Source of the DNA: Oscillospiraceae bacterium
Lineage (GTDB): Bacteria; Bacillota; Clostridia; Oscillospirales; Oscillospiraceae
NCBI GenBank assembly: GCA_902790375.1
Contig: CADARY010000017.1
Span: 1-46,221, forward strand
Length of the DNA: 46,221 nt
Reading direction: 5' to 3'
Shown piece by piece: positions 20,576 through 40,085 of the stretch. A program made the translations under genes and the position numbers. Positions within the stretch are counted from its first letter, which is position 1; each line of letters starts with the position of its first letter. The notes beneath the pieces were generated by a model, which saw only the letters and a program-made list of their open reading frames with translations, was not told the origin of the DNA and did not search any database.

Positions 20576-20604
20576 GTGACAGGGGAGCGCACTTGTTGTA
20601 TAAT
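20576..20604 (+). promoter_or_regulatory. Promoter of the cobalamin operon
   Basis: GTGACA (20576-20581), 17-nt spacer, TATAAT (20599-20604). It lies directly upstream of the riboswitch; no comparable promoter was seen inside the following 19 kb. Confidence 0.75.
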
Positions 20605-20796: not shown

Positions 20797-20825
20797 GGCG
20801 TGCCTTTTTGGGGCACGTCATTTTT
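20797..20825 (+). terminator. Riboswitch expression-platform terminator
   Basis: Stem GGCGTGCC (20797-20804) with GGCACGTC (20812-20819, one G-T pair), 7-nt loop, followed by A and TTTTT (20821-20825). It ends 20 nt before cbiF. Confidence 0.75.
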
Positions 20826-25167: not shown

Positions 25168-25168
25168 G

Positions 25169-26439: not shown

Positions 26440-26768
26440 TTTTTGTCACCGGCCCGCTCTTTGCGGGGAAAAGAGAATACATCCGCAAGACCCTCGGCCT
26501 GAGCGAGGAAGCGCTTGCCGCCCGCGCCGTCTGGGATGTGCAGGAGCTTGCCTGCGGCGCGGAGCTCACCGCTCTGGCACAGGCGCTTGCGCAGAAGGAG
26601 ATCGTCATCGCTACCGAGATCGGCGGCGGCCTCATTCCCATCGACCCGGTGGAGCGCGAAAAGCGCGAGGCCGCGGGCCGTCTTGCCTGCCTGCTGGCGG
26701 AGCGCGCCGACACGGTGATCCGCGTCTCCTGCGGCCTGGGGCAGATCCTGAAGGGGGAACTGCCGTGA
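26436..26768 (+). CDS. Short CobU-like protein (incomplete kinase/guanylyltransferase paralogue), 110 aa
   Basis: It starts MIFVTGPLFAGKREYIRK, a P-loop-like turn without the final S/T. It then jumps to a segment matching the CobU C-terminus: IVIATEIGGGLIPIDPVEREKREAAGRLACLLAERADTVIRVSCGLGQILKG, comparable to NEVG..P..P..R..RD..GR..Q..A..AD.V..V..GLP. Compared with the 170-residue CobU three genes upstream, the central region with the guanylylated histidine is missing. The reading frame is intact and overlaps cobS by ATGA and cobC by GTGA, so it is maintained as a gene rather than debris. It could be a regulatory or partner subunit; its function is unknown. Confidence is high that it is a gene, moderate on relationship. 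Confidence 0.75.
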   Translation: MIFVTGPLFAGKREYIRKTLGLSEEALAARAVWDVQELACGAELTALAQALAQKEIVIATEIGGGLIPIDPVEREKREAAGRLACLLAERADTVIRVSCGLGQILKGELP

Positions 26769-27328
26769 CGCTCTGTCTCATTCGCCACGGCCTCACCCGC
26801 CTCGGCGAGGAAAAACGCTATCAGGGCGCGCTGGACGAGGGGCTTTCCGACCATGGCCGCGCGGGATTAAAGCGGGCGGAGCCCACCCCTGAGCATGTCT
26901 ATGTCTCGCCGATGCTGCGCGCCCGGGAGACGGCGGCGATCCTGTTCCCGGCGTCTCGGCAGATCGTGATTCCGGATCTCCGGGAGATGGATTTCGGCGC
27001 GTTTGAAGGGCGCGGCTGGTGGGAAATGGAGCATGACGCCGCTTACCGCGCCTGGGTGGACGGCGGGTGCGCAGGCCGCTGCCCCGGCGGCGAGGACCGG
27101 GCCGAATACACGGCCCGGGTCTGCGCCGCGCTGGAAGCGCTCCTGCAAAAGGGCGAGGACCCGCTTGTGATCGTCGCCCACGGCGGTACGCAGATGGCGG
27201 CCCTTGAGCGCTGGGGCGAGCCACGGCGGGAATACTGGCAGGGCCAGCGCCCCTGCGGCTGCGGCTGGGCGCTTGACTGGGACGGGCAGCGCCTTCATGT
27301 CCTGCGGGAGGTGGATTTTCGCAGATGA
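26765..27328 (+). CDS. cobC: Alpha-ribazole phosphatase-like histidine phosphatase
   Basis: Phosphoglycerate-mutase-fold phosphatase: catalytic LIRHGLT (H8), SPMLRARETAAILF, EMDFGAFEGRGWWE and the second histidine in VIVAHGGTQM. In cobalamin operons this type removes phosphate from alpha-ribazole phosphate or adenosylcobalamin phosphate. The GTG start (26765) overlaps the TGA of the short cobU-like gene. It is 187 residues and overlaps cbiB by ATGA. Assignment to CobC rests on context; sequence alone would only say histidine phosphatase. Confidence 0.85.
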   Translation: MTLCLIRHGLTRLGEEKRYQGALDEGLSDHGRAGLKRAEPTPEHVYVSPMLRARETAAILFPASRQIVIPDLREMDFGAFEGRGWWEMEHDAAYRAWVDGGCAGRCPGGEDRAEYTARVCAALEALLQKGEDPLVIVAHGGTQMAALERWGEPRREYWQGQRPCGCGWALDWDGQRLHVLREVDFRR

Positions 27329-28293
27329 GGCTCCTGCTTGCCGCCCTCTGCGGCTTTGTGCTGGATTTGCTGCTGGGCGATCCCGCCTGGCTTACGCCTG
27401 CGCATCCGGTGGTGCTGATGGGCAAAGCCGTCACGGCCCTGGAAAAGCGCCTGCGCGCCCTGTTCCCCAAGACGCCGCAGGGCGAGTACCGCGCGGGCCT
27501 TGCGCTGGCGCTTCTGATGAGCGTCGGGACATTTCTGCTCTGCAAGCTTACCTTGCGCGCGCTGGACGCAATTTCCCCGGCGCTCGCCTTCGCGCTGGAG
27601 GCGATCTGGTGCTGGCAGGCTCTTGCCGTCAAGGATCTGCGCGTCGAGGCCATGCGCGTGCAGCACGCCCTCGAGACCGAGGGGCTGGACGCTGCCCGCA
27701 GGGCTGTTTCCCGGATCGTGGGCCGTGACACCGATGAGCTCAGCGCCGAGGGAGTCGCGCGCGCGGCGGTGGAGACCGTGGCGGAGAATTTTTCCGACGG
27801 GGTGATCGCCCCGCTTTTCTGGATGCTGGTGGGCGGCGCGCCGCTTGCCCTGTGCTATAAGGCCGTCAACACCATGGACAGCATGCTCGGCTACAAAAAC
27901 GCGCGCTATCTCCACTTCGGCCGGGCCCCGGCGAAGCTGGACGATGCGGCAAATTTCCTCCCCGCGCGCCTTGCCGCCCTGCTGCTGATCGCGGCGGCAT
28001 GGCTTATGGGGGAGGATGCGGCTTCGGCCTTGCGCATCTGGCGGCGAGACCGGAGAAAGCACGCAAGCCCCAACTCCGCCCAGTGCGAGGCGGCCATGGC
28101 GGGGGCGCTTGGCCTGCGCCTGGGCGGCCCGGCGCGCTATTTCGGCGTGCGGCATGAAAAGCCCTGGCTCGGGGACAAACGCCGGGAGATCGTCCCCGGG
28201 GATATCCGCCGCGCCTGCCGCCTGGAATACGCCGGGGCGGCGCTGGGCCTTGCGGCGCTGGGGGCGCTGCGTATGCTGCTGTACGCAGTATAA
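27325..28293 (+). CDS. cbiB: Adenosylcobinamide-phosphate synthase
   Basis: Membrane protein that couples (R)-1-aminopropan-2-ol phosphate (from CobD) to adenosylcobyric acid. Family marks: LDLLLGDPAWLTPAHPVVLMGK, VSRIVGRDTDELSAEGVARAAVETVAENFSDGVIAPLFW, AVNTMDSMLGYKNARYLHFGR and SPNSAQCEAAMAGALGLRLGG. It is 322 residues, normal length. It overlaps cobC by 4 nt and is followed after 12 bp by cobD, whose product it uses. Confidence 0.95.
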   Translation: MRLLLAALCGFVLDLLLGDPAWLTPAHPVVLMGKAVTALEKRLRALFPKTPQGEYRAGLALALLMSVGTFLLCKLTLRALDAISPALAFALEAIWCWQALAVKDLRVEAMRVQHALETEGLDAARRAVSRIVGRDTDELSAEGVARAAVETVAENFSDGVIAPLFWMLVGGAPLALCYKAVNTMDSMLGYKNARYLHFGRAPAKLDDAANFLPARLAALLLIAAAWLMGEDAASALRIWRRDRRKHASPNSAQCEAAMAGALGLRLGGPARYFGVRHEKPWLGDKRREIVPGDIRRACRLEYAGAALGLAALGALRMLLYAV

Positions 28294-28305
28294 GGAAGGA
28301 GAAAC

Positions 28306-29358
28306 ATGGAACTGATCCACGGCGGCGATTGGGCCGGGTTTGAAATGGAATACGGCACAAGGCCCCTGGACTTCTCGGCCAGTATCAGCCCCCTGGGTCT
28401 GCCGGAGGGGGCGCGCAGGGCGGCAAGGGACGCGCTGGCGGATGCGGAGCGCTACCCCGATCCCCTGTGCCGCGCCCTGCGGCAGGCGCTGGCGGCCTAT
28501 CACGATGTACCCGCGGACAGCATTGTCTGCGGCAGCGGGGCGGCGGATCTGATCTGGCGGCTCTGCCGCGCGCTGCGGCCCAAAAAGGCGGCGCTGTTCG
28601 TCCCCGGCTTTGCGGAGTATGAGCGCGCCCTTGCCTTTGAGGACTGCGAGATCGCGCGTCTGCCCCTGCCCGGGGATTTTCGCCTCACGGCGGATGCCGC
28701 CGCCCTTGTCCCGCCGGATACGGAGCTGCTGTTTCTCTGCAATCCCAATAACCCGACGGGCCTGCTCGCGGAGCAGAGCGCCCTGCAGGCGCTGCTGGAG
28801 CTCTGCCGGACACGGGGCATGACGCTCGCTGTCGATGAATGCTTTCTCGATTTCTGCGCAGACCCCGCAGAGCACAGCCTGGTCGGCGCGCTTGCCGGGA
28901 CGCCGGGGCTTGTGATCCTCAAGGCCTTTACCAAGACCTGTGCCATGGCGGGCCTGCGCCTGGGCTATGCCCTGTGCGGCAGGGCGGCGCTCGCGGAAAG
29001 GCTCCAGAGCTGCGGCCAGCCCTGGCCGGTATCCGCGCCTGCCCAGGCCGCAGGCGTGGCAGCCCTGCGGGATGAGGAGTACGTTAAGCGGCTGCGCGCC
29101 CTGATCACCGCCGAACGCCGCCGCCTGATCCCGGCGCTCGAGGCCCTTGGCCTGCGGGTAATCCCGGGGGAGGCAAACTTCCTGCTCTTTTACGCGGGGG
29201 ACCCGACCCTTGCCGACGCGCTGCGGGCGCGGGGCATCCTCATCCGGGACTGCCGGAGCTTTGACGGCCTCACGGCCGGCTGGTATCGCATCGCTGTCCG
29301 GACGGGGGAGGAGAACGACCGGCTCCTGACGGCGCTGGGGGAGGCGCTCCATGGCTAA
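28306..29358 (+). CDS. cobD: L-threonine-O-3-phosphate decarboxylase (class I/II PLP enzyme)
   Basis: HisC-like fold-type I PLP protein of 350 residues. LDFSASISPLGLPEG and YPDPLCRALRQALA are typical of CobD, as are the pocket motifs CGSGAADLIWRL, LCNPNNPTG and VDECFLDF. The PLP lysine is K210 in AFTKTCAMAGLRLGY, and WPVSAPAQAAG follows. It makes aminopropanol phosphate for CbiB. Histidinol-phosphate aminotransferases look similar; placement between cbiB and cbiP decides for CobD. An AAGGAGA site precedes the ATG and it overlaps cbiP by 8 nt. Confidence 0.9.
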   Translation: MELIHGGDWAGFEMEYGTRPLDFSASISPLGLPEGARRAARDALADAERYPDPLCRALRQALAAYHDVPADSIVCGSGAADLIWRLCRALRPKKAALFVPGFAEYERALAFEDCEIARLPLPGDFRLTADAAALVPPDTELLFLCNPNNPTGLLAEQSALQALLELCRTRGMTLAVDECFLDFCADPAEHSLVGALAGTPGLVILKAFTKTCAMAGLRLGYALCGRAALAERLQSCGQPWPVSAPAQAAGVAALRDEEYVKRLRALITAERRRLIPALEALGLRVIPGEANFLLFYAGDPTLADALRARGILIRDCRSFDGLTAGWYRIAVRTGEENDRLLTALGEALHG

Positions 29359-30844
29359 ACGAATCATGATCCAGGGCACCATGTCCGGCGCGGGCAAGAG
29401 CCTGCTGGTTACAGCCCTCTGCCGGATCTTCGCGCAGGACGGGTATCGCGTCGCGCCCTTCAAAAGCCAGAACATGGCCCTCAACAGCTTCGTCACGCCC
29501 GACGGGCTGGAGCTCGGCCGCGCCCAGGCGGTGCAGGCGGAGGCGGCGGGCGTGGAGTGCGACGTGCGCATGAACCCGATCCTCTTAAAGCCCTCCAGCG
29601 ACACGGGCAGCCAGCTCATCGTCAACGGCGAGGTGCGCGGGCACTATGACGCGCGGGCGTATTTCCGCATGAAGCGCAGCCTGATCCCGGACATTCTGAA
29701 CGCATACCGGAGCCTCGAGGCTGAAAACGACATCCTCGTCATAGAGGGGGCCGGTTCCCCGGCGGAGATCAACCTGCGCGAGGACGACATTGTCAACATG
29801 GGCCTTGCCGCTCTGGTGGACGCGCCGGTCCTGCTCGCGGGCGACATTGACAGAGGCGGCGTCTTCGCCCAGCTCTACGGTACGGTCGCCCTGCTGCGAG
29901 AGGAGGAGCGGCGGCGCGTGGAGGGGATCGTCATCAACAAATTCCGCGGGGATGTGGAGCTGCTGCGCCCGGGCCTGAGGCAGCTTGAGGCGCTGACGCA
30001 GGTGCCGGTCCTCGGCGTGGTGCCTTATGTCCGGGCGGACATCGACGATGAGGACAGCCTTGCCCCGCGCCTCGGACAGAGGCGGACGGCGCGCGCGATC
30101 CGGATCGCAGTCATCCGTCTTCCGCATATCTCCAACTTTACGGACTTTGCTCCGCTGGAAGAACACCCTGACATGGGGATATATTATGTAAACCAAACCG
30201 GCGAACTCGGAGAGCCGGACATGATCATCCTGCCGGGCACGAAAAACACCATGGCCGATCTCGTGTGGCTGCGGGAGAGCGGCCTTGCCGAAGCTGTTGC
30301 GGACGCGGCCGGACGCGGCACCCCGGTCCTCGGCGTCTGCGGCGGCTACCAGATGCTGGGCCGCACGCTCCGGGACCCGGCGGGCATCGAAGCGGGCGGA
30401 GAACTGCCCGGCCTCGGCCTTCTGCCGGCGGACACGGTGTTCACCGCCGAAAAGATACGCACACGGCGCAGGGCCGTCTGCACGGCGGGGCTCCTTGCCG
30501 GGGCGGAGCTCACCGGCTATGAGATCCACATGGGCCGGACCGACGCGGGAGATGCCCCGGCGTTCTGCCGCTTTCCTGACGGCGGGACGGACGGCGCGGT
30601 CTGCGGCGCGGTCTGCGGGACCTACCTGCACGGCCTCTTTGACAGCGGCGCGGCGGTGGAGAGGCTCGCGGCCAGGCTGGCGGAGCGGAAGGGGATCACG
30701 ATCCCCCGCGTGCATATCGAGACGCGCGCCGCCTCAAGAGACCGGCAGTACGATCTGCTGGCCGACGCGGTGCGAAAGGCGCTGGACATGCAGCGCATCT
30801 ACGAGATCATGGAGGAATACGCCGATGAAGACCCGGCCCGCTGA
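29351..30844 (+). CDS. cbiP: Cobyric acid synthase
   Basis: Glutamine- and ATP-dependent amidation of the b, d, e and g side chains of the corrin. N-terminal GTMSGAGKS (residues about 9-17) with APFKSQNMALNSFVTPDGLELGRAQAVQAEAAG is the CbiP/CobQ signature. SPAEINLREDDIVNMGLA and ADIDRGGVFAQLYGT lie mid-protein. The glutaminase nucleophile is C330 in GVCGGYQMLG, with the histidine in GTYLHGLF. It is 497 residues, standard. It overlaps cobD by 8 nt and cbiC by 20 nt. Confidence 0.96.
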   Translation: MAKRIMIQGTMSGAGKSLLVTALCRIFAQDGYRVAPFKSQNMALNSFVTPDGLELGRAQAVQAEAAGVECDVRMNPILLKPSSDTGSQLIVNGEVRGHYDARAYFRMKRSLIPDILNAYRSLEAENDILVIEGAGSPAEINLREDDIVNMGLAALVDAPVLLAGDIDRGGVFAQLYGTVALLREEERRRVEGIVINKFRGDVELLRPGLRQLEALTQVPVLGVVPYVRADIDDEDSLAPRLGQRRTARAIRIAVIRLPHISNFTDFAPLEEHPDMGIYYVNQTGELGEPDMIILPGTKNTMADLVWLRESGLAEAVADAAGRGTPVLGVCGGYQMLGRTLRDPAGIEAGGELPGLGLLPADTVFTAEKIRTRRRAVCTAGLLAGAELTGYEIHMGRTDAGDAPAFCRFPDGGTDGAVCGAVCGTYLHGLFDSGAAVERLAARLAERKGITIPRVHIETRAASRDRQYDLLADAVRKALDMQRIYEIMEEYADEDPAR

Positions 30845-31487
30845 AATCGAAAACGGGAGCATGGCGATCATCACGGAAGAGCTGCGCACAAGAGGCGTCG
30901 CGCTCCCGCCGGAGGACGCCGCCGTGATCCTCCGCTGCATCCACGCGAGCGCGGATTTTGACTACGCCGAGACGCTGCGCTTTACCCCCGGCGCTGTGGA
31001 GGCCGGAGTCAAGGCCCTGCGGAGGGGGACGGAGATCGTGACCGATACCAACATGGCCCTCGCCGGGCTCAGCCGCCCGGGCCTCAAAAAGCTCGGGGGC
31101 GCCGCGTACTGCTTCATGGCGGACGAGCGCGTTGCGGAAGCTGCCAGGGAACGGGGGACCACCCGGGCCGTCGCCGCCGTGGATTGGGCGGCGGCGCGGC
31201 ACCCGCATGCCATCCTCGCTGTCGGCAACGCCCCCACGGCCCTTTTGCGCATCGCGGAGAAGATCGAAGAGGGCCTGCGCCCGGCGCTTGTGATCGGGGT
31301 GCCGGTTGGCTTCGTGAACGTCGCGGAGAGCAAGGAGCGGGTGCTGGAGAGCTGCGAGAAGCACGGCGTGCCCGCCATCGTCGCCCTCGGACGCAAGGGG
31401 GGCAGCAGCATTGCCGCCGCCGTCTGCAACGCCCTGCTCTACACCGCGGCGGACATGCTGGACCCAAAGAAAAGGGGCTGGAGCTGA
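30825..31487 (+). CDS. cbiC: Cobalt-precorrin-8 methylmutase
   Basis: Moves the C11 methyl group to C12 to give cobyrinate. CIHASADFDYAETLRF holds the catalytic histidine (H40) expected in CbiC/CobH. Further family segments are VTDTNMALAGL, AILAVGNAPTALLRI, PALVIGVPVGFVNVAESKE and GRKGGSSIAAAVCNALL. It is 220 residues. ATG 30825 lies inside the end of cbiP (20-nt overlap). A Cys-rich small gene follows after 2 bp. Confidence 0.95.
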   Translation: MKTRPAEIENGSMAIITEELRTRGVALPPEDAAVILRCIHASADFDYAETLRFTPGAVEAGVKALRRGTEIVTDTNMALAGLSRPGLKKLGGAAYCFMADERVAEAARERGTTRAVAAVDWAAARHPHAILAVGNAPTALLRIAEKIEEGLRPALVIGVPVGFVNVAESKERVLESCEKHGVPAIVALGRKGGSSIAAAVCNALLYTAADMLDPKKRGWS

Positions 31488-31489
31488 AG

Positions 31490-31768
31490 ATGGAAAAGCA
31501 TTATCAATTCTTTCAAAACCGGTACTGCGAGTTTTTCCCGTGCCACAGCGGCGTTGCGGAGGCGGACTTCAACTGCCTCTTCTGCTACTGCCCCCTCTAT
31601 ACCCTGGGGGAGGCCTGCGGCGGGAACTATACCTATACCGAGAAGGGCGTGAAGAGCTGTGAAGGCTGCGCTTTTCCCCATCAGCGGGAGAACTACGCCG
31701 CTTTGCTCAGGCGCTTCCCGGAGCTCTGCGCCCTGGCTGCGCGGCGGGAGGGCAGGAATGGGCTTTGA
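31490..31768 (+). CDS. Cysteine-rich small-domain protein, 92 aa
   Basis: A compact protein with ten cysteines arranged YCEFFPCHSG, FNCLFCYCPLY, EACGGNYTYTEKGVKSCEGCAFPHQRENY and LCAL. This matches the small Cys-rich domain that recurs in cobalamin loci of anaerobes (PF04071-like, by memory of the pattern). The cysteine and histidine spacing suggests binding of zinc, cobalt or an FeS centre, and no enzymatic motif is present. It sits between cbiC (2 bp) and cbiD (11-nt overlap), so co-expression and probably a pathway role (metal delivery or protein scaffold) are inferred. I know of no demonstrated function. Confidence 0.85.
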   Translation: MEKHYQFFQNRYCEFFPCHSGVAEADFNCLFCYCPLYTLGEACGGNYTYTEKGVKSCEGCAFPHQRENYAALLRRFPELCALAARREGRNGL

Positions 31769-32891
31769 ACACTATATCCGCAGCGGGACAAGACGCCTGC
31801 GCTGCGGCTATACCACCGGCACCTGCGCGGCCCTCGCTGCGGCCGGAGCGGCGGAGCTGCTGCTCACGGGCAGGGCGCCCGCCGTTGTGAGCCTCATGAC
31901 GCCCAAGGGCTTTCCGGTGGAGCTGGAGCCAGACTACTGCCGCATGGAGGGCTCGGAGGCCTGCTGCGCCATCCGCAAGGACGCCGGGGACGACCCGGAT
32001 GTGACCGACGGCGTGCTGATCTGTGCCGCGGTCCGGAAGGCGGAGCACGGCATTGAGCTTGACGGTGGGGAGGGCGTCGGCCGTGTGACGAAGCCGGGCC
32101 TTGACCAGCCGGTGGGCGCCGCGGCCATCAACAGTGTGCCCCGGCAGATGATCCGGGCGGCTGCAGAGCGGGTATGCAGAGCCTGCACCTACACCGGCGG
32201 GCTTAAGATCCTGATCTCCGTTCCCGGCGGGGAGGAGATCGCAAAGCGGACCTTCAACCCCCGGCTCGGCATCGCGGGCGGCCTTTCGATCCTCGGCAGC
32301 TCCGGCATCGTCGAGCCTATGAGCGAGCGCGCCATCGTGGAGACCACCGCGCTGGAGATCCGCCAGGCGGCGGCAGGCGGCGGCAAGCGCCTCATCCTCC
32401 TGCCCGGCAACTACGGCATGGACTATCTCACAACGGCCCTGCCGGAGCTGGAGCCGATCCCCCGGGCCAAATGCTCCAACTATATCGGCGAGGCCATCGA
32501 CGCTGCCCGGGTCGAGGGCTTTGCGGAGCTGCTGCTGATCGGCCACATCGGCAAGCTTGTGAAGCTTGCGGGCGGGATCATGAACACCCACTCCAAAACC
32601 GCCGACTGCCGGCGGGAGCTCTTCGTCTGTCACGCGGCTCTCTGCGGCGCGGACACGGCGACCTGCCGCGCCCTGATGGCGGAGGTCAGCAGCGAGGGCT
32701 GCCTTGCCGTGCTGGATCGCGCAGGCCTCCGGGAGAGCGTGACGGAAAGCCTGCTCTGTGCCGTTCAGGAGGCGCTGACACGGCGGGCGGGCGACATGCG
32801 CATCGGGGCTCTGCTGTTTTCCGGCGATAAGGACCTGACCGGCCTCACCGCCGGGGCAAAGGAGCTGATGGATAAATGGAGAAAAGGATGA
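31758..32891 (+). CDS. cbiD: Cobalt-precorrin-5B C1-methyltransferase
   Basis: CbiD methylates C1 of the corrin ring in the anaerobic pathway. The N-terminal LRCGYTTGTCAALAAAGAAELLLTG is the family hallmark (YTTGTCA). Also seen are DDPDVTDG, GVGRVTKPGLDQPVGAAAINSVPR, TFNPRLGIAGGLSILGSSGIVEPMSE and LIGHIGKLVKLAGGIMNTHSKTAD. It is 377 residues. ATG 31758 follows GCAGGA and overlaps the Cys-rich gene by 11 nt and cbiG by 16 nt. It confirms the oxygen-independent route. Confidence 0.96.
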   Translation: MGFEHYIRSGTRRLRCGYTTGTCAALAAAGAAELLLTGRAPAVVSLMTPKGFPVELEPDYCRMEGSEACCAIRKDAGDDPDVTDGVLICAAVRKAEHGIELDGGEGVGRVTKPGLDQPVGAAAINSVPRQMIRAAAERVCRACTYTGGLKILISVPGGEEIAKRTFNPRLGIAGGLSILGSSGIVEPMSERAIVETTALEIRQAAAGGGKRLILLPGNYGMDYLTTALPELEPIPRAKCSNYIGEAIDAARVEGFAELLLIGHIGKLVKLAGGIMNTHSKTADCRRELFVCHAALCGADTATCRALMAEVSSEGCLAVLDRAGLRESVTESLLCAVQEALTRRAGDMRIGALLFSGDKDLTGLTAGAKELMDKWRKG

Positions 32892-33877
32892 GAGAGGGCA
32901 TCGCCCTGACCGCCTTTACGGAACGGGGGCGGGAGCTTGCCTCCGAGCTCGCCGCGGCCCTCGGCGGGACGCTGCGGGAAAATACGCAGCCCCTCGCAGA
33001 TTGGACAGAGGAGCGCTTTGCAGCCTGTGAGGCGCTGGTTTTCATCGGGGCCGCGGGCATTGCGGTGCGCTCGATCGCCCCGCACCTCCAAAGCAAGGCG
33101 GCCGACCCCGCTGTGATCTGTATGGACGAGGCGGGGCGCTGGATCGTCCCGATCCTCTCCGGCCATCTCGGCGGGGGCAACGCCCTCGCAGGGCGCCTTG
33201 CCGCCCTCACCGGAGGCGAGGCTGTGATCACCACCGCCACGGACGTAAACGGCCGCTTCGCCGTGGATCTCTGGGCCAAACGGCAGAACATGGCGGTCCT
33301 GCAGCCGGAGCGGATCAAAATCGTCTCCGCTAAAATCCTGCGGGGAGAGACCATCACCGTCGACTGCCCGCGGCCCATCGCCGGAGCCGCGCCGGACTTG
33401 GTGCGCCCCGGCCGGGACGCGGATGTCGTCGTTTCCTATCGGGTGCCTGCGGGCGGCGCTTTGCAGCTTGTCCCGCGCGTTCTGACACTCGGGGTCGGGT
33501 GCAGGCGGGGAACAGGAGCGGATACTCTGGAGGCTGCCTTCCGGCAATTCTGCGCCGAGCGCGGCATCGCGCCGGAGGCCATCGAGCGCGCCGCCACCAT
33601 CGACCTCAAGCAGGACGAGGAGGGGCTTCTGCGCTTCTGCGCGTCCCACGGCTGGCCGCTGCGCTTTTACAGTGCCGAAGAGCTGCAAAGCGCGCCGGGA
33701 GCATACAGCGCCTCGGATTTTGTAAAGAGCGTGACAGGCGTCGACAATGTCTGCGAGCGCGCGGCGGGCATCGAAGCAGGCGAGAGCCTGATCGAAAAAA
33801 AATACGCCCGCGGCGGGGTGACCTTCGCCCTGGCCGAGAGGCGCAAAGACTATGATTGGAGCTGGCAGGATGGCTGA
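32876..33877 (+). CDS. cbiG: Cobalt-precorrin-5A hydrolase
   Basis: CbiG opens the delta-lactone and releases acetaldehyde during ring contraction. The N-terminal domain contains LVFIGAAGIAVRSIAPHLQSKAADPAVICMDEAGR and ILSGHLGGGNALA. The C-terminal domain contains LGVGCRRGTGADTLEAA, IERAATIDLKQDEEGL and the DNVCERAA segment (family: N-V-C-E-x-A/S-A). It is 333 residues. The first ATG (32876) is used; an in-frame ATG four codons later (32888) is possible. It overlaps cbiD by 16 nt and cbiH by 8 nt. Confidence 0.94.
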   Translation: MEKRMREGIALTAFTERGRELASELAAALGGTLRENTQPLADWTEERFAACEALVFIGAAGIAVRSIAPHLQSKAADPAVICMDEAGRWIVPILSGHLGGGNALAGRLAALTGGEAVITTATDVNGRFAVDLWAKRQNMAVLQPERIKIVSAKILRGETITVDCPRPIAGAAPDLVRPGRDADVVVSYRVPAGGALQLVPRVLTLGVGCRRGTGADTLEAAFRQFCAERGIAPEAIERAATIDLKQDEEGLLRFCASHGWPLRFYSAEELQSAPGAYSASDFVKSVTGVDNVCERAAGIEAGESLIEKKYARGGVTFALAERRKDYDWSWQDG

Positions 33878-34598
33878 ACTGTACGTTGTGGGCATCGGTC
33901 CCGGCAATGCTGAAAACCTGACCGGGGCGGCGCGGGCAGCGCTCGAAAAGGCGTCGCTTCTGTGCGGCTATACCGTGTACGCGGATCTCCTGCGCCCGAT
34001 GTACCCGGAAAAGGAATACTACACCACCGGCATGACCGGAGAGATCGAACGCTGCCGCCGCTGTCTGGAGCGGGCCGCGGCGGGGGAGACGGTCGCCCTC
34101 GTCTGCAGCGGGGATGCGGGCGTCTATGGCATGGCGGGCCCGGTGCTCGCGCTCAAGCCGGAATATCCCGGCGTGTCGGTGACGGTGATCCCCGGCGTCA
34201 CGGCGGCGCTCTCGGGCGGGGCTCTGCTCGGCGCGCCGCTGGGGCACGATTTCTGCGTGATCTCGCTCTCCGACCGCCTGACCGACTGGGCGCTCATCGA
34301 AAAACGCCTGCGTCTGGCAGCGCAGGGGGACTTTGCCATCTGCCTGTATAACCCCGCCTCCCGACACCGGCAGGACTATCTGCAGAGGGCCTGCGACATC
34401 CTGCTTACGGAGAAGGGCGGCGACACCGTCTGCGGTCTTGTCCGGCAGGTCGGGCGCGAGGGGGAGAGCTGGCAGATCCTGGATCTCAAAACCCTGCGGG
34501 ACACCCGGGCCGACATGTTCACGACGGTGTTCATCGGCTCGTCTCAGACCCTTGAGATCGGCGGGCGCATGGTGACGCCCCGGGGGTATCGCGTATGA
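33870..34598 (+). CDS. cbiH: Precorrin-3B / cobalt-factor III C17-methyltransferase
   Basis: Uroporphyrin-type methyltransferase fold that methylates C17 and triggers ring contraction. Motifs: YVVGIGPGNAENLTGAARAAL, LLCGYTVYADLL, VALVCSGDAGVYGMAGP, VTVIPGVTAALSGGALLGAPLGHDFCVISLSD and ICLYNPASRHRQDYL. It is 242 residues. ATG 33870 is preferred over the in-frame ATG at 33852 because GGAG (33857-33860) is well placed for it. It overlaps cbiG by 8 nt and cbiJ by 4 nt. Confidence 0.94.
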   Translation: MAELYVVGIGPGNAENLTGAARAALEKASLLCGYTVYADLLRPMYPEKEYYTTGMTGEIERCRRCLERAAAGETVALVCSGDAGVYGMAGPVLALKPEYPGVSVTVIPGVTAALSGGALLGAPLGHDFCVISLSDRLTDWALIEKRLRLAAQGDFAICLYNPASRHRQDYLQRACDILLTEKGGDTVCGLVRQVGREGESWQILDLKTLRDTRADMFTTVFIGSSQTLEIGGRMVTPRGYRV

Positions 34599-35341
34599 GG
34601 ATCGTAGTTTTCGGCGGCACCACCGAGGGGCGGGAGCTTTCAAAGCTGCTGCATGATGCCGGCGCGGACGTCACGGTCTGCGTCGCCACGCAGTACGGCG
34701 AGGAGGAGCAGGGGCAGGTCCCCGGCGTCGTGACGCATGTGGGCCCCCTCACGGCGGAGGAAAAGCAGCGGCTCCTGCGGGACGCCGCCCTCTGTGTGGA
34801 CGCCACGCACCCCTACGCAGACCGCGTGACGGCATCGGTGCGGGCGGCCTGCGCGGCGGCGGGGGTGGAATACCTGCGCCTGCTGCGCAAAGCCTCTGAG
34901 ATCCCGGACGCCGTCACGCTCGAGAGCGCGGCAGCGGCGGCAGCCTGGCTCAGGGAGCGGGAAGGCCGCGTCCTGCTCACCACCGGGGCAAAGGAGCTCG
35001 CGGCCTACGCGGTCCTCGATCCGGCGCGGCTTGTGCCCCGCGTCCTGCCGAGCCATGAGAGCCTTGCCGCCTGTGAGGCCCTGGGGATTCCCCACCGCAA
35101 CATCATCGCCATGCAGGGGCCCTTTACAAAGGAGCTCAACGCCGCCGTCATCCGCCAGTACGGCGTCCGCTATGTCGTCACAAAGGACGGCGGCGGGCCC
35201 GGCGGCTTCCCCGAAAAGGCGGCAGCCGCGAAGGAGACCGGCGCGCAGCTCATCGTCCTGCGCCGCCCGGCGGACAGCGGCGTTTCGTTTGACGAGGCTT
35301 TAAGACTGTGCATAACGCGACTGAGCGATGCAAATAGATGA
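34595..35341 (+). CDS. cbiJ: Cobalt-precorrin-6A reductase
   Basis: NAD(P)H-dependent reductase of the corrin macrocycle. N-terminal IVVFGGTTEGRELSKLLHDAGADVTVCVAT is the dinucleotide-binding region. CVDATHPYADRVTASVRAACAAAGVEYLRLLR is the family's DATHPYA motif, with LLTTGAKELAAY and MQGPFTKELNAAVIRQYGVRYVVTKDGG following. It is 248 residues. It overlaps cbiH by 4 nt. It is the last cytoplasmic cobalamin biosynthesis gene of the operon; the exported cbiK follows after 21 bp. Confidence 0.93.
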   Translation: MRIVVFGGTTEGRELSKLLHDAGADVTVCVATQYGEEEQGQVPGVVTHVGPLTAEEKQRLLRDAALCVDATHPYADRVTASVRAACAAAGVEYLRLLRKASEIPDAVTLESAAAAAAWLREREGRVLLTTGAKELAAYAVLDPARLVPRVLPSHESLAACEALGIPHRNIIAMQGPFTKELNAAVIRQYGVRYVVTKDGGGPGGFPEKAAAAKETGAQLIVLRRPADSGVSFDEALRLCITRLSDANR

Positions 35342-35362: not shown

Positions 35363-36325
35363 ATGAGAACCATCCGGAAAATTCTGGCCTGTATCCTGAG
35401 CCTGGCCCTTGCGCTGAGCGTCTGCGGCCCCATGACCGCCTTTGCCGAAGAGAAGGAAGAGGAGAACTTCGAAACCGGCGACGCCTCCCTGGACGATCCC
35501 CGCAACGCTGACAAGATCGGGGAGAGGGAGCTGCTGGTCGTGTCCTTCGGCACCAGCTACAACGACAGCCGCCGCCTGACCATCGGCGCGATCGAGAGCG
35601 ACCTGGAGGCCGCCTTCCCCGACTGGAGCGTGCGCCGCGCCTTCACAAGCCAGATCATCATCGACCATGTGAAGAAGCGTGACGGCGAGGTCATCGACAA
35701 CGTGCACGACGCCCTGGAGCGCGCGGTCAACAACGGCGTCAAGACCCTCGTCGTGCAGCCGACGCACCTGATGCACGGGTTTGAGTACAACGACCTGAAA
35801 AACGAGCTTGCCGAATATGCCGACGCCTTTGACCGTGTCGTCCTGGCCGAGCCCCTGCTGAACACCGACCGCGACTTCGACATGGTAGCCGAGGCCGTGG
35901 CCGCCGCAACGGCAGCGTATGACAACGGGGATACCGCGATCTGCTTCATGGGCCACGGCACCGAGGCGGAGTCCAACGCGGTCTATGCCAAAATGCAGAC
36001 CGTCCTTAAAGAGGCGGGCTGCGAGCACTATTACATCGGCACGGTCGAGGCCGAGCCCACGGTCGGGGATGTGCTCGGGATGGTGCAGGCCGGCGCTTAC
36101 AAGCGCGTCGTGCTGCGTCCCCTGATGATCGTGGCGGGTGACCATGCCAACAACGACATGGCGGGCGACGAGGCCGACTCCTGGAAGAGCGTTTTTGCCG
36201 CTGCGGGCTATGAGGTCGAATGCGTGGTCGAGGGCCTGGGTCAGCTGCCCGCCGTCCGGCAGCTCATCGTGGAGCACACACGCGAGGCCATGGCCGCAAA
36301 CGACGTGGAGGAGAGCGCAAAATGA
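35363..36325 (+). CDS. cbiK: Exported CbiK-type sirohydrochlorin cobaltochelatase-like protein, 320 aa
   Basis: A clear signal peptide (MRTIRKILACILSLALALSVCGPMTAFA, cleavage about 28) and an acidic spacer precede a full CbiK-type chelatase domain (from about residue 54: RELLVVSFGTSYNDSRRLTIGAIE). Candidate metal ligands match those known for Salmonella CbiK: H198 in CFMGHGTEAE, a glutamate in GTVEAEP (229/231) and H261 in AGDHANNDM. The domain is complete, so catalysis is plausible, but outside the membrane, unlike the cytosolic chelatase needed for corrin synthesis. It lies between cbiJ and an exported beta-domain protein plus ABC importer. This suggests a role in binding or metallating/demetallating an external tetrapyrrole. 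ATG 35363 has an AAAGGAG site. It overlaps the next gene by ATGA. Confidence 0.88.
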   Translation: MRTIRKILACILSLALALSVCGPMTAFAEEKEEENFETGDASLDDPRNADKIGERELLVVSFGTSYNDSRRLTIGAIESDLEAAFPDWSVRRAFTSQIIIDHVKKRDGEVIDNVHDALERAVNNGVKTLVVQPTHLMHGFEYNDLKNELAEYADAFDRVVLAEPLLNTDRDFDMVAEAVAAATAAYDNGDTAICFMGHGTEAESNAVYAKMQTVLKEAGCEHYYIGTVEAEPTVGDVLGMVQAGAYKRVVLRPLMIVAGDHANNDMAGDEADSWKSVFAAAGYEVECVVEGLGQLPAVRQLIVEHTREAMAANDVEESAK

Positions 36326-37179
36326 AAAAGAGCCTTGCTCTGCTCCTTGCGCTGTTCGCGCTTTCGAGCATGGGCGCTGCCGCCTCCGCCGGCACCTCCG
36401 ACGTGGCGGACGCCGCGCAGATGACCACGGTGGAGCAGGTCGGGGACGAGGACATGATCCCCGTCTATCCCGAAAGCCTTCGTGACGGAGAATACCCCGT
36501 GACGGTGGAAAGCAGCTCCTCCATGTTCCGTATTGAAAGCGCCGTGCTCACGGTGAAGGATGGGACAATGTCCGCCGTCCTCACCATGAGCGGCAAGAGC
36601 TATCTCTATGTCTATCCCGGCGCCGCCGAAGAGGCGGCCGGCGCGGCGGAGGACGCCTTTGTCCCCTTCGTGGAAAACGCCGAGGGGGCGCACACCTTCA
36701 CCATCCCGGTAAAGGCCCTGGACACCCCCGTATCCTGCGCGGCCTACAGCAAAAACAAGGAGCTCTGGTATGCGCGCAGCCTCCTCTTCCGGGCGGACTC
36801 CCTGCCTGTGAGCGCCTTCCGGGAGGGCTTTTTCACCACGGCTTCGAGCCTCAAGCTGGCCGACGGGCGTTATCTGGTTGAGGTGAAGCTCGCGGGCGGC
36901 AGCGGGAAAGCCCGCGTCCAGAGCCCGACAGAGCTGAGCGTAAAGGACGGAAGATGCACCGCCCGCATCGGCTGGAGCAGTAAAAACTATGACTACATGA
37001 AGGTGGAGGGGGAAAAGTTTCTGCCCATCCCGAATGAGGAGTACGCCGCCTTTGAGATCCCGGTGCTCTTTTTCGACCGGCCCATGGCGGTGATCGCCGA
37101 TACCGTCGCCATGAGCGAGCCGCACGAGATCCGCTACACCCTCCGCTTTGACTCCGATAGTCTGGAGGCGGCCCCGTGA
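36322..37179 (+). CDS. Exported two-domain beta-rich protein (NEAT/haem-binding-like), 285 aa
   Basis: The signal peptide is residues 1-23. Two related domains follow. Domain 1 (about 52-175) reads DGEYPVTVESSSSMFRIE, MSAVLTMSGKSYLYVYPGAAEEA, FTIPVKALDTPVSC and KNKELWYARSLLF. Domain 2 (about 180-283) reads DGRYLVEVKLAGGSGKARV, CTARIGWSSKNYDYMKVEGEKF, FEIPVLFFDRPM and IRYTLRF. The Tyr-rich SYLYVY/NYDYMKV strands and Ig-like pattern recall NEAT or Shp-type haem-binding domains; this is pattern similarity only. It overlaps the exported chelatase and the binding-protein gene by 4 nt each, so all three are tied in expression. A haem/corrinoid relay at the cell surface is inferred. Confidence 0.75.
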   Translation: MKKSLALLLALFALSSMGAAASAGTSDVADAAQMTTVEQVGDEDMIPVYPESLRDGEYPVTVESSSSMFRIESAVLTVKDGTMSAVLTMSGKSYLYVYPGAAEEAAGAAEDAFVPFVENAEGAHTFTIPVKALDTPVSCAAYSKNKELWYARSLLFRADSLPVSAFREGFFTTASSLKLADGRYLVEVKLAGGSGKARVQSPTELSVKDGRCTARIGWSSKNYDYMKVEGEKFLPIPNEEYAAFEIPVLFFDRPMAVIADTVAMSEPHEIRYTLRFDSDSLEAAP

Positions 37180-38276
37180 GGCGGGCGCTCTGCGTCTGCC
37201 TTGTGCTGCTGGCACTGCTGCTCTGTCCCGGCACGGCCTTTGCCGGGACGGCGGAGCCTCTCGGCAGCATGGACTTACAGTACGCCGAACACTTTTCCGT
37301 GGACTATTACAGCGGCGGCGCCGCGCGGCTTCGGATCGGGGCGGACCAGGTTTATCTGCTCCTGCCCGCCGGGTGTGAAGTCCCCGCGGGATTGGAGGCC
37401 CTGCCGCGCATCCCCGTCCCGGCGGAAAAGCTCTACCTTGCAAGCTCCTCCGCCCCCGATCTCTTCCTGCGGATGGGGGCGCTGGATGCGGTGCGCTACA
37501 GCTCCACCGCCCCGGAAAACTGGCGCATCCCGGAGCTGCGGACAGCCATGGAGGAAGAGCGGATCCGATACGTCGGCAAATACAGCGCGCCGGATTACGA
37601 GCTGCTGCTCAGCGAGGGCTGCGGCCTTGCCATCGAGAACACCATGATCCTCCACAGCCCCGCCGTCCGGGAGAAGCTGGAGGAGCTGGGCATCCCCGTG
37701 CTGATCGAATATTCAAGCTACGAGTCCCACCCCCTCGGCCGGGTGGAGTGGATACGGCTCTACGGGCTTCTGACCGGGCGGCAGGCGGAGGCGGACGCCT
37801 TTTTTGACCGCCAGCGGGAGCTTTTCCGGACGGTCGAGAACGCGGCGCCCTCCGGCAAAAGCGTCGCCTTCTTCCATCTTACCCCCGGCGGCGGTGTCGT
37901 GGTGCGCCGGGCGGCGGACTATGTCACACGCATGATCGAGCTTGCCGGCGGCAAAACTGCCTTCACCGATCTCCCGGGGGAGGACAGCGCCCTGTCTACG
38001 GTGACGATCCAGCTGGAATCCTTCTATGCCCAGGCGCGGGATGCGGACGTGCTGATCTACAACAGCACCACCGCCGGGGACGTAGAGGATCTGGACGCCT
38101 TTCTCGCTCTCAGCCCGGTGCTGAGGGATTTTAAGGCGGTGAAGGAAAACCATGTCTGGTGCACGGAGATGAGCATGTTCCAGCGCTCCTCCGCGGCGGC
38201 GGACATGATCGCGGACATCCGCGCCGTACTCGACGGGGCGGACAGAGATTTGACGTATTTACACAGGATACAATGA
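37176..38276 (+). CDS. ABC transporter substrate-binding protein (BtuF/FecB family), 366 aa
   Basis: A GTG start at 37176 overlaps the previous TGA. The signal sequence is MRRALCVCLVLLALLLCPGTAFA; the usual lipobox is not convincing, so attachment is uncertain. The mature part follows the helical-backbone (type III) binding-protein pattern: ASSSAPDLFLRMGALDAV, GKYSAPDYELLLSEGCGLAIENTM, a long linking helix region (LGRVEWIRLYGLLTGRQAEADAFFDRQREL), MIELAGGKTAF and VLIYNSTTAGDVEDLDAFL, then VWCTEMSMFQRS. This family binds cobalamin, haem or ferric siderophores. B12-riboswitch control and the neighbouring exported chelatase favour a corrinoid or other tetrapyrrole. Confidence 0.85.
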   Translation: MRRALCVCLVLLALLLCPGTAFAGTAEPLGSMDLQYAEHFSVDYYSGGAARLRIGADQVYLLLPAGCEVPAGLEALPRIPVPAEKLYLASSSAPDLFLRMGALDAVRYSSTAPENWRIPELRTAMEEERIRYVGKYSAPDYELLLSEGCGLAIENTMILHSPAVREKLEELGIPVLIEYSSYESHPLGRVEWIRLYGLLTGRQAEADAFFDRQRELFRTVENAAPSGKSVAFFHLTPGGGVVVRRAADYVTRMIELAGGKTAFTDLPGEDSALSTVTIQLESFYAQARDADVLIYNSTTAGDVEDLDAFLALSPVLRDFKAVKENHVWCTEMSMFQRSSAAADMIADIRAVLDGADRDLTYLHRIQ

Positions 38277-38277
38277 T

Positions 38278-39300
38278 ATGAGCATGAGCAGGACAAAACG
38301 CAGTCTTCTCTGTTTTCTGCTCCTGGCTGTGCTGGCACTGGGCTTGGGCCTTACCAATCTCGCGGTGGGCAGCACGCGCATCGGAGCAGGGGCGCTCCTT
38401 CGCGCGCTTTTTTCCGGGGACAGGACAGAGAGCGCCGCGCGCATTGTGTGGGGCATCCGCCTGCCGCGCCTGCTCGCGGCGGCGCTGCTGGGCGGGGCGC
38501 TGTCGGTGGCGGGCTTTCTGCTGCAGACCTTCTTTTCCAATCCCATCGCAGGGCCCTTTGTGCTGGGCGTCTCCTCGGGCGCAAAGCTCACCGTGGCCCT
38601 CACGATGATCGCCTGCCTCGAACGCGGCGTGAGCCTGAGCGCCTGGGGCATGATCGGCGCGGCCTTTCCGGGAGCGCTTCTCGCCATAGGCTGTCTCCTG
38701 CTCGCGGCGGGCCGGACCCGCGGCATGGCGCGCCTGATCGTCTGCGGGGTGATGATCGGCTATATCTGCTCGTCGATCACGGACTTTGTGGTGACCTTTG
38801 CCGACGACAGCCATATCGTAAACCTGCACTACTGGACCATGGGCAGCTTCTCGGGCGTGGACTGGGCAGAGCTTGGCACGGCGGCCCTGATCGCCGCGGC
38901 GGGGCTTGTCTGCTGTGTTTTCCTGGCTAAGCCCATGGCGGCCTGGCAGCTCGGGGAGGACTATGCCGCCAGCATGGGGGTGAATATCCGCCGCTTCCGC
39001 CTTGCCCTCATCGGACTGTCAAGCCTCCTGGCCGCCTGCGTCACGGCCTTTGCCGGGCCCATCTCCTTTGTGGGCATTGCGGTGCCGCAGCTCATGAAGG
39101 GGCTCTTTCAGACCGCAAGGCCGGGCGTGCTGATTCCCGCCTGCTTTCTCGGCGGAGCGGGCTTTTGTCTGGGCTGCGATCTGCTTGCCCGCACCCTCTT
39201 TGCGCCGACGGAGCTTGCCATCGGCTCGGTGACGGCGCTCTTCGGCGCGCCGGTCGTGATCTGGATTTTGCTCCGGCGCGGAAAGGGGGGCGGCGTATGA
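38278..39300 (+). CDS. ABC transporter permease (BtuC/FecCD family), 340 aa
   Basis: Highly hydrophobic with about ten helices and the FecCD signature: IRLPRLLAAALLGGALSVAGFLLQTFFSNPIAGPFVLGVSSGAKL, LIVCGVMIGYICSSITDF, YWTMGSFSGVDWAEL, and GPISFVGIAVPQLMKGLF near the C-terminus. It is the membrane channel of the importer formed with the preceding binding protein and the following ATPase. It starts 1 bp after the binding-protein stop and overlaps the ATPase by 4 nt. Substrate as for the binding protein: corrinoid, haem or chelated metal. Confidence 0.92.
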   Translation: MSMSRTKRSLLCFLLLAVLALGLGLTNLAVGSTRIGAGALLRALFSGDRTESAARIVWGIRLPRLLAAALLGGALSVAGFLLQTFFSNPIAGPFVLGVSSGAKLTVALTMIACLERGVSLSAWGMIGAAFPGALLAIGCLLLAAGRTRGMARLIVCGVMIGYICSSITDFVVTFADDSHIVNLHYWTMGSFSGVDWAELGTAALIAAAGLVCCVFLAKPMAAWQLGEDYAASMGVNIRRFRLALIGLSSLLAACVTAFAGPISFVGIAVPQLMKGLFQTARPGVLIPACFLGGAGFCLGCDLLARTLFAPTELAIGSVTALFGAPVVIWILLRRGKGGGV

Positions 39301-40085
39301 ACGAGACGATCCTGTATACGCAAAAGCTCTCCGTCGGCTATGGGGAAAAAACCGTGGTCTCGGACATTGACCTCAGTGCCGCGGCAGGGCAGCTCCTCTG
39401 CCTCATCGGCCCGAACGGGGCGGGCAAGTCCACGCTCCTCAAGACCCTGATCCGCGCCCTGCCCCCGGTGCGCGGGGAGATCATGCTTGCGGGCAGAGCG
39501 CTCCGGGACTATCGGGAGCGGGAGCTTGCCCGGCTCTGCGCCGCGGTCCTGACCGGAAAGCCCGAGCCGGAGCTCATGCGCTGCGGGGAGGTGGTTGCTG
39601 CCGGGCGCTACCCCTATACGGGCCGCCTCGGCCTGCTCACGGAGAAAGACCGCCGCGTCGTGCGCGAGATGATGGAGAAGGTCGGCATCGCCGCCCTTGC
39701 CGAGCGGGATTTCACCCGCGTCAGCGACGGACAGCGCCAGCGGGTCCTGCTGGCCCGCGCCCTCTGCCAGCAGCCGCGCCTTCTCGTTCTGGATGAGCCC
39801 ACCTCCTTTCTGGACATACGCCACAAGCTGGAGTTTCTCCGGCTTCTGCGCGCGCTCTCAAAGGAGCGGCAGATCGCCGTGGTCATGAGCATGCACGAGC
39901 TGGAGCTTGCCGAGCGCTTTGCCGATACTCTCCTCTGCATCAAGGACGGGCGCGTGGATCGCAGCGGCGCTCCGGCGGAGATTTTCAGCGGCGGGTATAT
40001 CGACAGCCTTTACGGCATGGAGACCGGCAGCTACGAGAGCCTTTTCGGAACGTATCGAAAAAGGAAAAATGCAGGCGTGACTTGA
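39297..40085 (+). CDS. ABC transporter ATP-binding protein (BtuD/FepC family), 262 aa
   Basis: Complete ABC ATPase. Walker A is GPNGAGKST (about 39-47) and the Q-loop region TGKPEPELMRCGEVVAAGRYPYTGRLG is typical of the FecE/BtuD branch. The signature reads VSDGQRQRVLLARAL (SDGQ rather than SGGQ), Walker B is LLVLDEPTSFLD, and the H-loop is MSMHELELAERFAD. It energises the upstream permease. It is the last gene of the B12-controlled operon; the promoter of the next gene begins within its stop codon. Confidence 0.93.
   Translation: MNETILYTQKLSVGYGEKTVVSDIDLSAAAGQLLCLIGPNGAGKSTLLKTLIRALPPVRGEIMLAGRALRDYRERELARLCAAVLTGKPEPELMRCGEVVAAGRYPYTGRLGLLTEKDRRVVREMMEKVGIAALAERDFTRVSDGQRQRVLLARALCQQPRLLVLDEPTSFLDIRHKLEFLRLLRALSKERQIAVVMSMHELELAERFADTLLCIKDGRVDRSGAPAEIFSGGYIDSLYGMETGSYESLFGTYRKRKNAGVT

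What the first reader, a model, noticed from the sequence alone, without database searches (positions are those of the whole stretch)
35363..40085. Exported CbiK chelatase, haem-binding-like protein and ABC importer form a surface tetrapyrrole module inside a B12-riboswitch operon
The CbiK domain is complete, with both putative metal histidines and the glutamate, but follows a clear signal peptide, so it cannot serve cytosolic cobalt insertion. It is translationally coupled to a two-domain exported beta protein with Tyr-rich NEAT/Shp-like strands and to a BtuFCD/FecBCD-type importer. One reading: the cell captures external tetrapyrroles (corrinoid, haem, sirohydrochlorin or cobalt porphyrin), changes the metal outside, and imports the product when cobalamin is scarce. 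Signal peptides, motifs and overlaps are seen; the joint function is inference. Periplasmic CbiK forms are known in sulfate reducers, but linkage to such a beta-domain protein in a monoderm is, as far as I know, not described.
Basis: partly seen in the sequence, partly recalled or inferred. Interest (0 to 1): 0.72.

Follow-up and report, generated by a model that had tools for sequence, protein, structure and literature searches.

The report
Surface chelatase importing vitamin B12 precursors
Gut bacteria that lack the genes for the first steps of vitamin B12 synthesis carry, under a B12-sensing RNA switch, an exported metal-inserting enzyme joined to ligand-carrier domains and an importer, which suggests that they fetch a half-built B12 ring from neighbours and load its cobalt outside the cell.

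Summary
Window 35363-40085 encodes an exported CbiK with its catalytic residues, an exported protein with two NEAT-fold domains, and a FecBCD-type importer, closing a B12 operon with a weak but recognisable cobalamin riboswitch (20615-20746). New here: in the window's genome (88.6% complete) no other CbiK/CbiX/CobN and no HemB, HemC, SUMT or CbiL was found, though CbiH onward is present; most CbiK-bearing genomes of the genus look alike. Across Clostridia, genomes with exported CbiK lack HemB more often (17 of 29) than those with cytosolic CbiK (5 of 44); the NEAT protein lies nearby in 22 of 29 loci and a cobalamin riboswitch in 20 of 29. CbiK-NEAT and NEAT-SBP fusions suggest the order CbiK, NEAT-N, NEAT-C, SBP. 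Best reading: a B12-repressed surface system of precursor salvagers that captures an isobacteriochlorin (sirohydrochlorin; factor III where CbiL is missing), probably inserts cobalt outside and imports the product. Substrate and chemistry are untested; 12 of 29 exported-CbiK genomes keep HemB; the association is not significant on phylogenetic pairs (4 pairs). Nearest kin, P. gingivalis Iht and Desulfovibrio periplasmic CbiK, are read as haem or iron systems.

The parts
20576..20604 (+). promoter-like site GTGACA-17-TATAAT before the operon
   Evidence: consensus scan, 11 of 12 matches
20615..20746 (+). cobalamin riboswitch aptamer, divergent
   Evidence: RF00174 24.6 bits, E 3.5e-4 in a 701-base search, below the gathering score 31.5
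20797..20819 (+). terminator-like hairpin with T tail, likely expression platform of the riboswitch
20845..35341 (+). corrin-ring and late B12 genes: cbiF, cbiET, cbiA, cobT, cobU, cobS, cobU-like, cobC, cbiB, cobD, cbiP, cbiC, Cys-rich ORF, cbiD, cbiG, cbiH, cbiJ; no cbiL and no cytosolic chelatase seen
   Evidence: NCBIfam/Pfam for CbiF, CbiE/T, CbiA, CbiC, CbiD, CbiG, CbiH, CbiB, CbiP, CbiJ; the remaining names by my recognition of the translations
35363..35446 (+). signal peptide of the exported CbiK
   Evidence: sequence; hydrophobic core and charge test
35363..36325 (+). exported class II chelatase (CbiK domain)
   Evidence: PF06180 1.6e-76; catalytic residues
36322..37179 (+). exported tandem NEAT-fold protein (285 aa)
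   Evidence: AlphaFold models and PDB fold matches
37176..38276 (+). substrate-binding protein of the importer (BtuF/FecB type)
   Evidence: PF01497 1.1e-26
38278..39300 (+). FecCD/BtuC-type permease
   Evidence: PF01032 2e-78
39297..40085 (+). importer ATPase
   Evidence: PF00005 2.5e-28

Best explanation
This is a cobalamin-riboswitch-controlled cell-surface uptake system for a late tetrapyrrole precursor of B12. Shown: an exported CbiK with its catalytic residues is linked to tandem NEAT-fold domains and a FecBCD importer; in the genome CbiH onward is present, but no HemB, HemC, SUMT or CbiL and no other known cobalt chelatase was found. Inferred: the cell takes a metal-free isobacteriochlorin released by other microbes (sirohydrochlorin in relatives that keep CbiL; its C20-methylated form, factor III, in the window's genus); the exported CbiK inserts cobalt outside the membrane; the product passes NEAT-N, NEAT-C, SBP, permease; CbiH and the later enzymes finish B12. 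AdoCbl sensed by the riboswitch shuts the system.
For: Own genome (88.6% complete): the only CbiK found is the exported one, no CobN (13), no separate CbiX (14), no HemB (20), no HemC (23), no SUMT over cut-off; the only CbiL-model matches are weak ones at CbiF, CbiE and CbiH (21). Same genus: HemB in 1 of 12 CbiK-bearing genomes, CbiL over cut-off in 1 of 12 plus one copy split over two contigs. Class survey: 392 genomes, 138 with a CbiK-model match; HemB absent in 17 of 29 exported-CbiK genomes against 5 of 44 cytosolic (39, 42; Fisher p 2.5e-5, not corrected for kinship); CbiD present in 29 of 29 exported. NEAT protein in 22 of 29 exported loci against 1 of 69 cytosolic. Cobalamin riboswitch in 20 of 29 exported survey loci against 0 of 10 cytosolic tested, and in 6 of 7 named loci tested; same strand as CbiK in 26 of 26 measured. 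Fusions CbiK-NEAT (11 frames) and NEAT-SBP (15 frames); CbiK with NEAT-N beside NEAT-C-SBP in 5 loci.
Against: 12 of 29 exported-CbiK genomes keep HemB (39). G061 and G066 carry the module and lack HemB but have HemC and SUMT (20, 22, 23, 39), so their gap is earlier, at porphobilinogen; G016 has SUMT. G250 and G067 lack HemB yet carry an exported and a cytosolic CbiK, and G366 a second CbiK of cytosolic length, so there exported CbiK need not insert the cobalt. L027 has no CbiK between cbiJ and the NEAT gene. G382 has HemB but no CbiL match. Five of 44 cytosolic-CbiK genomes also lack HemB (39). On the CbiK tree only 4 independent pairs exist and the sign test is not significant. Many genomes are MAGs; HemA, HemL, HemD not searched. 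No ligand or activity evidence.
Confidence: 0.55

Rival explanations
1. Same salvage system, but the exported CbiK strips an unwanted metal (Fe, Zn, Ni) from scavenged isobacteriochlorins or only binds them; the ring is imported metal-free or already with cobalt, and cobalt is handled inside.
For: Some HemB-minus genomes have both exported and cytosolic-type CbiK (G250, G067; G366 by frame length); L027 lacks the CbiK gene but keeps NEAT plus importer (the rest of its genome was not searched for CbiK).
Against: No cytosolic CbiK, CbiX or CobN found in the window's genome; catalytic residues are invariant.
Confidence: 0.2
2. Haem or iron acquisition: exported CbiK removes iron from haem, as proposed for P. 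gingivalis IhtB, and NEAT plus ABC import haem or its iron.
For: NEAT folds are haem carriers in solved structures; a solved exported relative is called a heme-binding protein (FetB), and IhtB is thought to remove iron from haem (PMC10913741 passages).
Against: Cobalamin riboswitches precede the module; it sits in B12 operons in many loci; the haem-ligand Tyr position is K146 (K in 28 of 32) and H268 (H 26, Y 4 of 32).
Confidence: 0.12
3. Ordinary corrinoid uptake: the ABC system is a BtuFCD importing cobamides or cobinamide, and CbiK/NEAT only help to bind corrinoids at the surface.
For: BtuC and corrinoid ATPase models are among the best NCBIfam matches, below their cut-offs; B12-riboswitch control is typical of corrinoid transporters (general knowledge).
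Against: A corrinoid importer does not explain keeping CbiH to CbiJ while losing what precedes CbiH, nor a chelatase with catalytic residues outside.
Confidence: 0.1

Closest known systems
Porphyromonas gingivalis Iht system (IhtA-E; that IhtB is the FetB of PDB 9b86 is recalled)
   Same: Exported CbiK homologue with SBP, permease and ATPase (PMC10913741 passages); the organism is also reported to lack the steps to precorrin-2 (Shelton et al., PMC6461909 passages).
   Different: Diderm with a TonB receptor, no NEAT partner named; described as a haem/iron system. A B12-precursor role is not proposed in the passages seen.
Desulfovibrio vulgaris periplasmic CbiK (recalled as PDB 2xvx-2xvz; one search names it only 'chelatase, putative')
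   Same: Signal-bearing CbiK (recalled); a B12-element regulates cbiK-cbiL and btuCDF in Desulfovibrio (PMC545781 passages; which cbiK is not stated there).
   Different: Diderm; its haem-associated role is recalled, the primary papers were not read; no NEAT partner known to me.
Tetrapyrrole precursor salvagers (Shelton et al. 2018)
   Same: B12 pathway without early tetrapyrrole genes, mostly Firmicutes; a precorrin-2 class is reported (PMC8123684 passage).
   Different: No uptake machinery proposed in the passages and section seen; ALA use is the only phenotype tested there; the window's genus also lacks CbiL, a later entry point.
NEAT haemophores (IsdX1, IsdX2, IsdH/IsdB) and Shp
   Same: Fold of both domains.
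   Different: Below the Pfam NEAT cut-off, no Tyr at the haem-ligand position in the window protein, B12-linked rather than iron-linked context.

Membership tests
Class II chelatase CbiK | PF06180 over cut-off | tested here: met
   257.5 bits against 26.2
Class II chelatase CbiK | two catalytic His and a Glu | tested here: met
NCBIfam NF047852 sirohydrochlorin cobaltochelatase (equivalog) | curated cut-off 400 bits | tested here: not met
   229.5 bits: not filed as this equivalog
Class II chelatase CbiK | cobalt insertion activity | not testable with these tools
   needs enzyme assay
NEAT domain PF05031 | Pfam gathering score 32.8 | tested here: not met
   18.9 bits: called NEAT-fold, not filed as a Pfam NEAT
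NEAT domain | NEAT beta fold | tested here: met
Haem-binding NEAT | Tyr ligand of the YxxxY motif (motif recalled) | tested here: not met
   K146 and H268 there in the window protein; N-domain position from the IsdX2 alignment, C-domain position by analogy; the second Tyr (Y150, Y272) is 32 of 32
Cobalamin riboswitch RF00174 | gathering score 31.5 (window copy) | tested here: not met
   24.6 bits, E 3.5e-4; relatives at 41-119 bits upstream of exported CbiK
ABC importer of the BtuFCD/FecBCD type | SBP, FecCD permease, ATPase domains | tested here: met
BtuC equivalog PRK03784 | curated cut-off 334 bits | tested here: not met
   209.2 bits
Tetrapyrrole precursor salvager (Shelton) | early tetrapyrrole genes missing | tested here: met
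   no HemB, HemC, SUMT in an 88.6% complete genome; HemA, HemL, HemD not searched
Tetrapyrrole precursor salvager (Shelton) | complete corrin ring pathway | tested here: not met
   no CbiL found in the window's genome; the genus would be a later class
P. gingivalis Iht-like system | exported CbiK plus ABC importer genes | tested here: met
P. gingivalis Iht-like system | TonB-dependent receptor beside it | tested here: not met
   none among the module's five genes or the two flanking genes scanned

The most novel reading that the evidence does not exclude
In a set of gut and rumen Clostridia vitamin B12 synthesis starts outside the cell: these bacteria have discarded the pathway up to sirohydrochlorin or even factor III, scavenge that ring from neighbours, insert cobalt with an exported chelatase and pass the cobalt isobacteriochlorin through a NEAT relay to a dedicated importer. 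Porphyromonas Iht would be the diderm counterpart.
Probability: 0.45. Interest if true: 0.88.

Novelty: new variant of a known kind. Interest (0 to 1): 0.74.

Why it matters
Precursor salvagers were inferred from genomes, and ALA use is what was tested in the passages read; no uptake route was named there. This module would supply one, would put the first committed cobalt step outside the membrane, would make corrin-pathway intermediates a traded public good in gut and rumen, and would question the haem reading of exported CbiK proteins such as IhtB. It is testable in a cultured isolate, Agathobaculum butyriciproducens, which carries module and riboswitch, CbiL and CbiD, and shows no HemB, HemC or SUMT over cut-off; its genome was not searched for a cytosolic chelatase.

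Tried and rejected
Riboswitch first looked absent; a focused search found it, so 'no riboswitch' was dropped.

Dual targeting of CbiK from an internal start: in the stretch read, the one in-frame ATG after the start lies inside the signal peptide with no obvious ribosome site; several relatives lack a Met there. Unlikely, not excluded.

CbiL hidden under another name: the window's three methylases are CbiF, CbiE and CbiH by NCBIfam. A non-orthologous C20-methylase cannot be excluded.

Association by kinship: Fisher test 2.5e-5, but the phylogenetic pair test has 4 pairs (on average b goes the same way in 2.3, the other way in 0.2, no difference in 1.5) and is not significant (quick tree, several long branches flagged). 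Two of two exported f53 genomes lack HemB, ten of ten cytosolic ones have it; in f43 exported ones split 5 without and 7 with.

Rows dropped or moved: L120 was scored exported by the script and moved to cytosolic by hand, because its hydrophobic stretch lies upstream of the apparent start; L175 stayed undecided; L003 is cut by the contig end and was counted as exported only; L032 was misread by the script and its lipoprotein-type signal was read. Only 44 cytosolic genomes were tested for HemB (most same-genus copies dropped). 100 CbiK places were fetched; second copies and some low scorers were not. 'Exported' was judged by a hydrophobicity-and-charge rule, not SignalP. The ATPase does not discriminate (20 of 29 exported, 21 of 71 cytosolic loci). 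Nine of 29 exported survey loci showed no riboswitch; in eight of them CbiK follows importer genes (L081, L088, L098, L116, L117, L121, L124, L127) and only about 1.2 kb upstream was held; the ninth is L167. The ten cytosolic controls had the same limit.

Literature: no paper describing an exported CbiK-NEAT-ABC system or extracellular cobalt insertion in B12 salvage appeared in the listings of searches (open-licence library only).
Full report
What is there. Window 35363-40085 (+) encodes, in overlapping or near-touching genes, an exported CbiK, a 285-aa exported protein, a substrate-binding protein, a FecCD permease and an ATPase. They close a B12 operon that starts at cbiF (20845) behind a promoter-like site, a divergent cobalamin riboswitch (20615-20746, 24.6 bits, cut-off 31.5, E 3.5e-4) and a terminator-like hairpin. 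NCBIfam places CbiF, CbiE/T, CbiA, CbiD, CbiH, CbiB and CbiP over the cut-off of at least one model each and CbiJ likewise; CbiC and CbiG match clearly but under the cut-offs of the listed models. No CbiL and no cytosolic chelatase was seen in the window.

The exported chelatase. PF06180 matches at 1.6e-76 after a Sec-type signal. Sequence relatives with structures are a sirohydrochlorin cobaltochelatase (1qgo, 157.8 bits; Salmonella CbiK, organism recalled), a 'heme-binding protein FetB' (9b86, 146.8; P. gingivalis, recalled) and a putative chelatase (2xvx, 125.0; Desulfovibrio, recalled). Two His and a Glu are invariant in 56 exported and 73 cytosolic homologues aligned.

What the genome lacks. 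In the window's genome (88.6% complete) the exported protein is the only CbiK found; no CobN; the only CbiX match is the same gene; no HemB, no HemC, no SUMT over cut-off, and CbiL-model matches only at CbiF, CbiE and CbiH. HemB was found in 3 of 20 genomes tested (G028, G064 with the module; G046 with cytosolic CbiK), HemC in 6 of 29, SUMT over cut-off in 7 of 29. In the window's genus 12 of 37 genomes have CbiK; of these, 1 of 12 has HemB and 1 of 12 has CbiL over cut-off, one more in two pieces. The retained steps begin at CbiH, so the missing input would be cobalt-factor III (pathway order: PMC7242693 passages). Relatives such as Agathobaculum (G060) show no HemB, HemC or SUMT over cut-off but keep CbiL, so their input would be (cobalt-)sirohydrochlorin. 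Others differ: G061 and G066 lack HemB but have HemC and SUMT, a gap at porphobilinogen that this reading does not explain.

Conservation of the linkage. The scan for the 285-aa protein gave 18 loci, from Ruminococcaceae/Oscillospiraceae MAGs, Agathobaculum, Lachnospiraceae and others; 17 of 18 have a CbiK gene near it, L027 does not. Sixteen of the 17 were scored exported by the script and the seventeenth, L032, shows a lipoprotein-type signal. In L029, L031, L032 and L034 no corrin-ring gene cluster was seen in the held flank (L031 has one weak CbiF-like match), so the linkage is not a by-product of the B12 operon.

Class survey. Of 392 Clostridia genomes 138 have a CbiK-model match (129 over the cut-off). 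One hundred places were fetched and classified (recount): script 30 exported, 69 cytosolic, 1 undecided; after one hand correction 29, 70, 1. NEAT protein in 22 of 29 exported loci against 1 of 69 cytosolic; permease 20 of 29 against 3 of 71; SBP 16 of 29 against 1 of 71; ATPase 20 of 29 against 21 of 71, so the ATPase does not discriminate. HemB absent in 17 of 29 exported against 5 of 44 cytosolic genomes (Fisher p 2.5e-5), over seven families; CbiD present in 29 of 29. CbiL gave no match at 1e-20 in 7 of 29 exported genomes: G134, G207, G155, G174, G432, G244 and G382; G382 has HemB, the other six do not. On the CbiK tree the exported state needs at least 5 changes, 4 forced by starred branches; the independent-pair test is not significant.

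Regulation. Cobalamin riboswitches at gathering lie upstream of exported CbiK in 6 of 7 named loci, 17 of 20 further loci and 4 of 10 more, against 0 of 10 cytosolic loci. Among survey loci this is 20 of 29. In 26 of 26 loci measured the strand agrees and the distance to the start chosen by the script is under 500 bases (in L152 that start overlaps the aptamer and is probably wrong).

Order of transfer. Eleven exported CbiK frames carry a fused NEAT domain and fifteen SBP frames do. In L148, L150, L152, L153 and L157 CbiK bears the N-domain (in L157 before CbiK, in the others after it) and the SBP bears the C-domain. This suggests CbiK, NEAT-N, NEAT-C, SBP, permease.

Mechanism and rivals. The simplest joint reading is salvage of an isobacteriochlorin with cobalt insertion outside. 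The uptake of a corrin-pathway precursor is, in my judgement, about 0.7 likely; extracellular cobalt insertion about 0.5. Against it: HemB is kept in 12 of 29 exported genomes, some of which also have a cytosolic CbiK (G330, G156, G163, G392, and G300 by the hand-corrected L120); HemB-minus G250 and G067 have both CbiK forms, G366 a second copy of cytosolic length; L027 does without the CbiK gene there. Dechelation, haem uptake and plain corrinoid uptake are the rivals.

Known kin. P. gingivalis Iht has TonB receptor, CbiK-like lipoprotein, SBP, permease and ATPase, is thought to strip iron from haem, and IhtB is said not to be regulated by PgFur (PMC10913741 passages). Shelton et al. note that P. 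gingivalis lacks the steps to precorrin-2 (PMC6461909 passages; section 13 read). PMC545781 reports a B12-element before cbiK-cbiL and btuCDF in Desulfovibrio (passages). Passages of PMC12654859, PMC7689651, PMC13227078 and PMC8123684 were also seen; other papers only as listings. Lobo 2008 and Roper 2000 were seen only as references. No description of the present system was found in the searches named under Tried and rejected.

Noticed in passing
window 35447-35530 and L020-L034: A conserved linker (about YETGDASLDDPRNxDxIGE) joins signal peptide and CbiK domain in the window's clade; the Lachnospiraceae-type proteins have a different conserved stretch (LIDAIYVQ...) there.
   Followed up: no
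L081 5050-6822 (G457): A single exported frame with two CbiK domains in tandem (Pfam two stretches), beside ABC ATPase and permease, in a genome with HemB.
   Followed up: partly
L037 154-10372: Exported CbiK, NEAT, SBP, permease, ATPase and then a cytosolic CbiK in one cluster, a second NEAT-type gene nearby, and two cobalamin riboswitches facing apart.
   Followed up: partly
L036 10679-13048: Two substrate-binding protein genes in tandem in the module; no cobalamin riboswitch at gathering in this locus.
   Followed up: no
window 26418-26768: A short CobU-like gene between cobS and cobC, in addition to cobU, seen at 66-92% identity in seven relatives' loci.
   Followed up: no
window 40154-42766: Large FeS/FAD oxidoreductase (GltD-like) directly after the module, found there also in L026 (97%) but not in the other loci compared.
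   Followed up: no
G382 C41:24846-25640 and G336 C1:319097-319909: A second, divergent CbiD-like gene in two exported-CbiK genomes.
   Followed up: no
L155 5700-5868: Clostridiales-1 RNA (RF01699, 140.4 bits) beside the module's importer genes.
   Followed up: no
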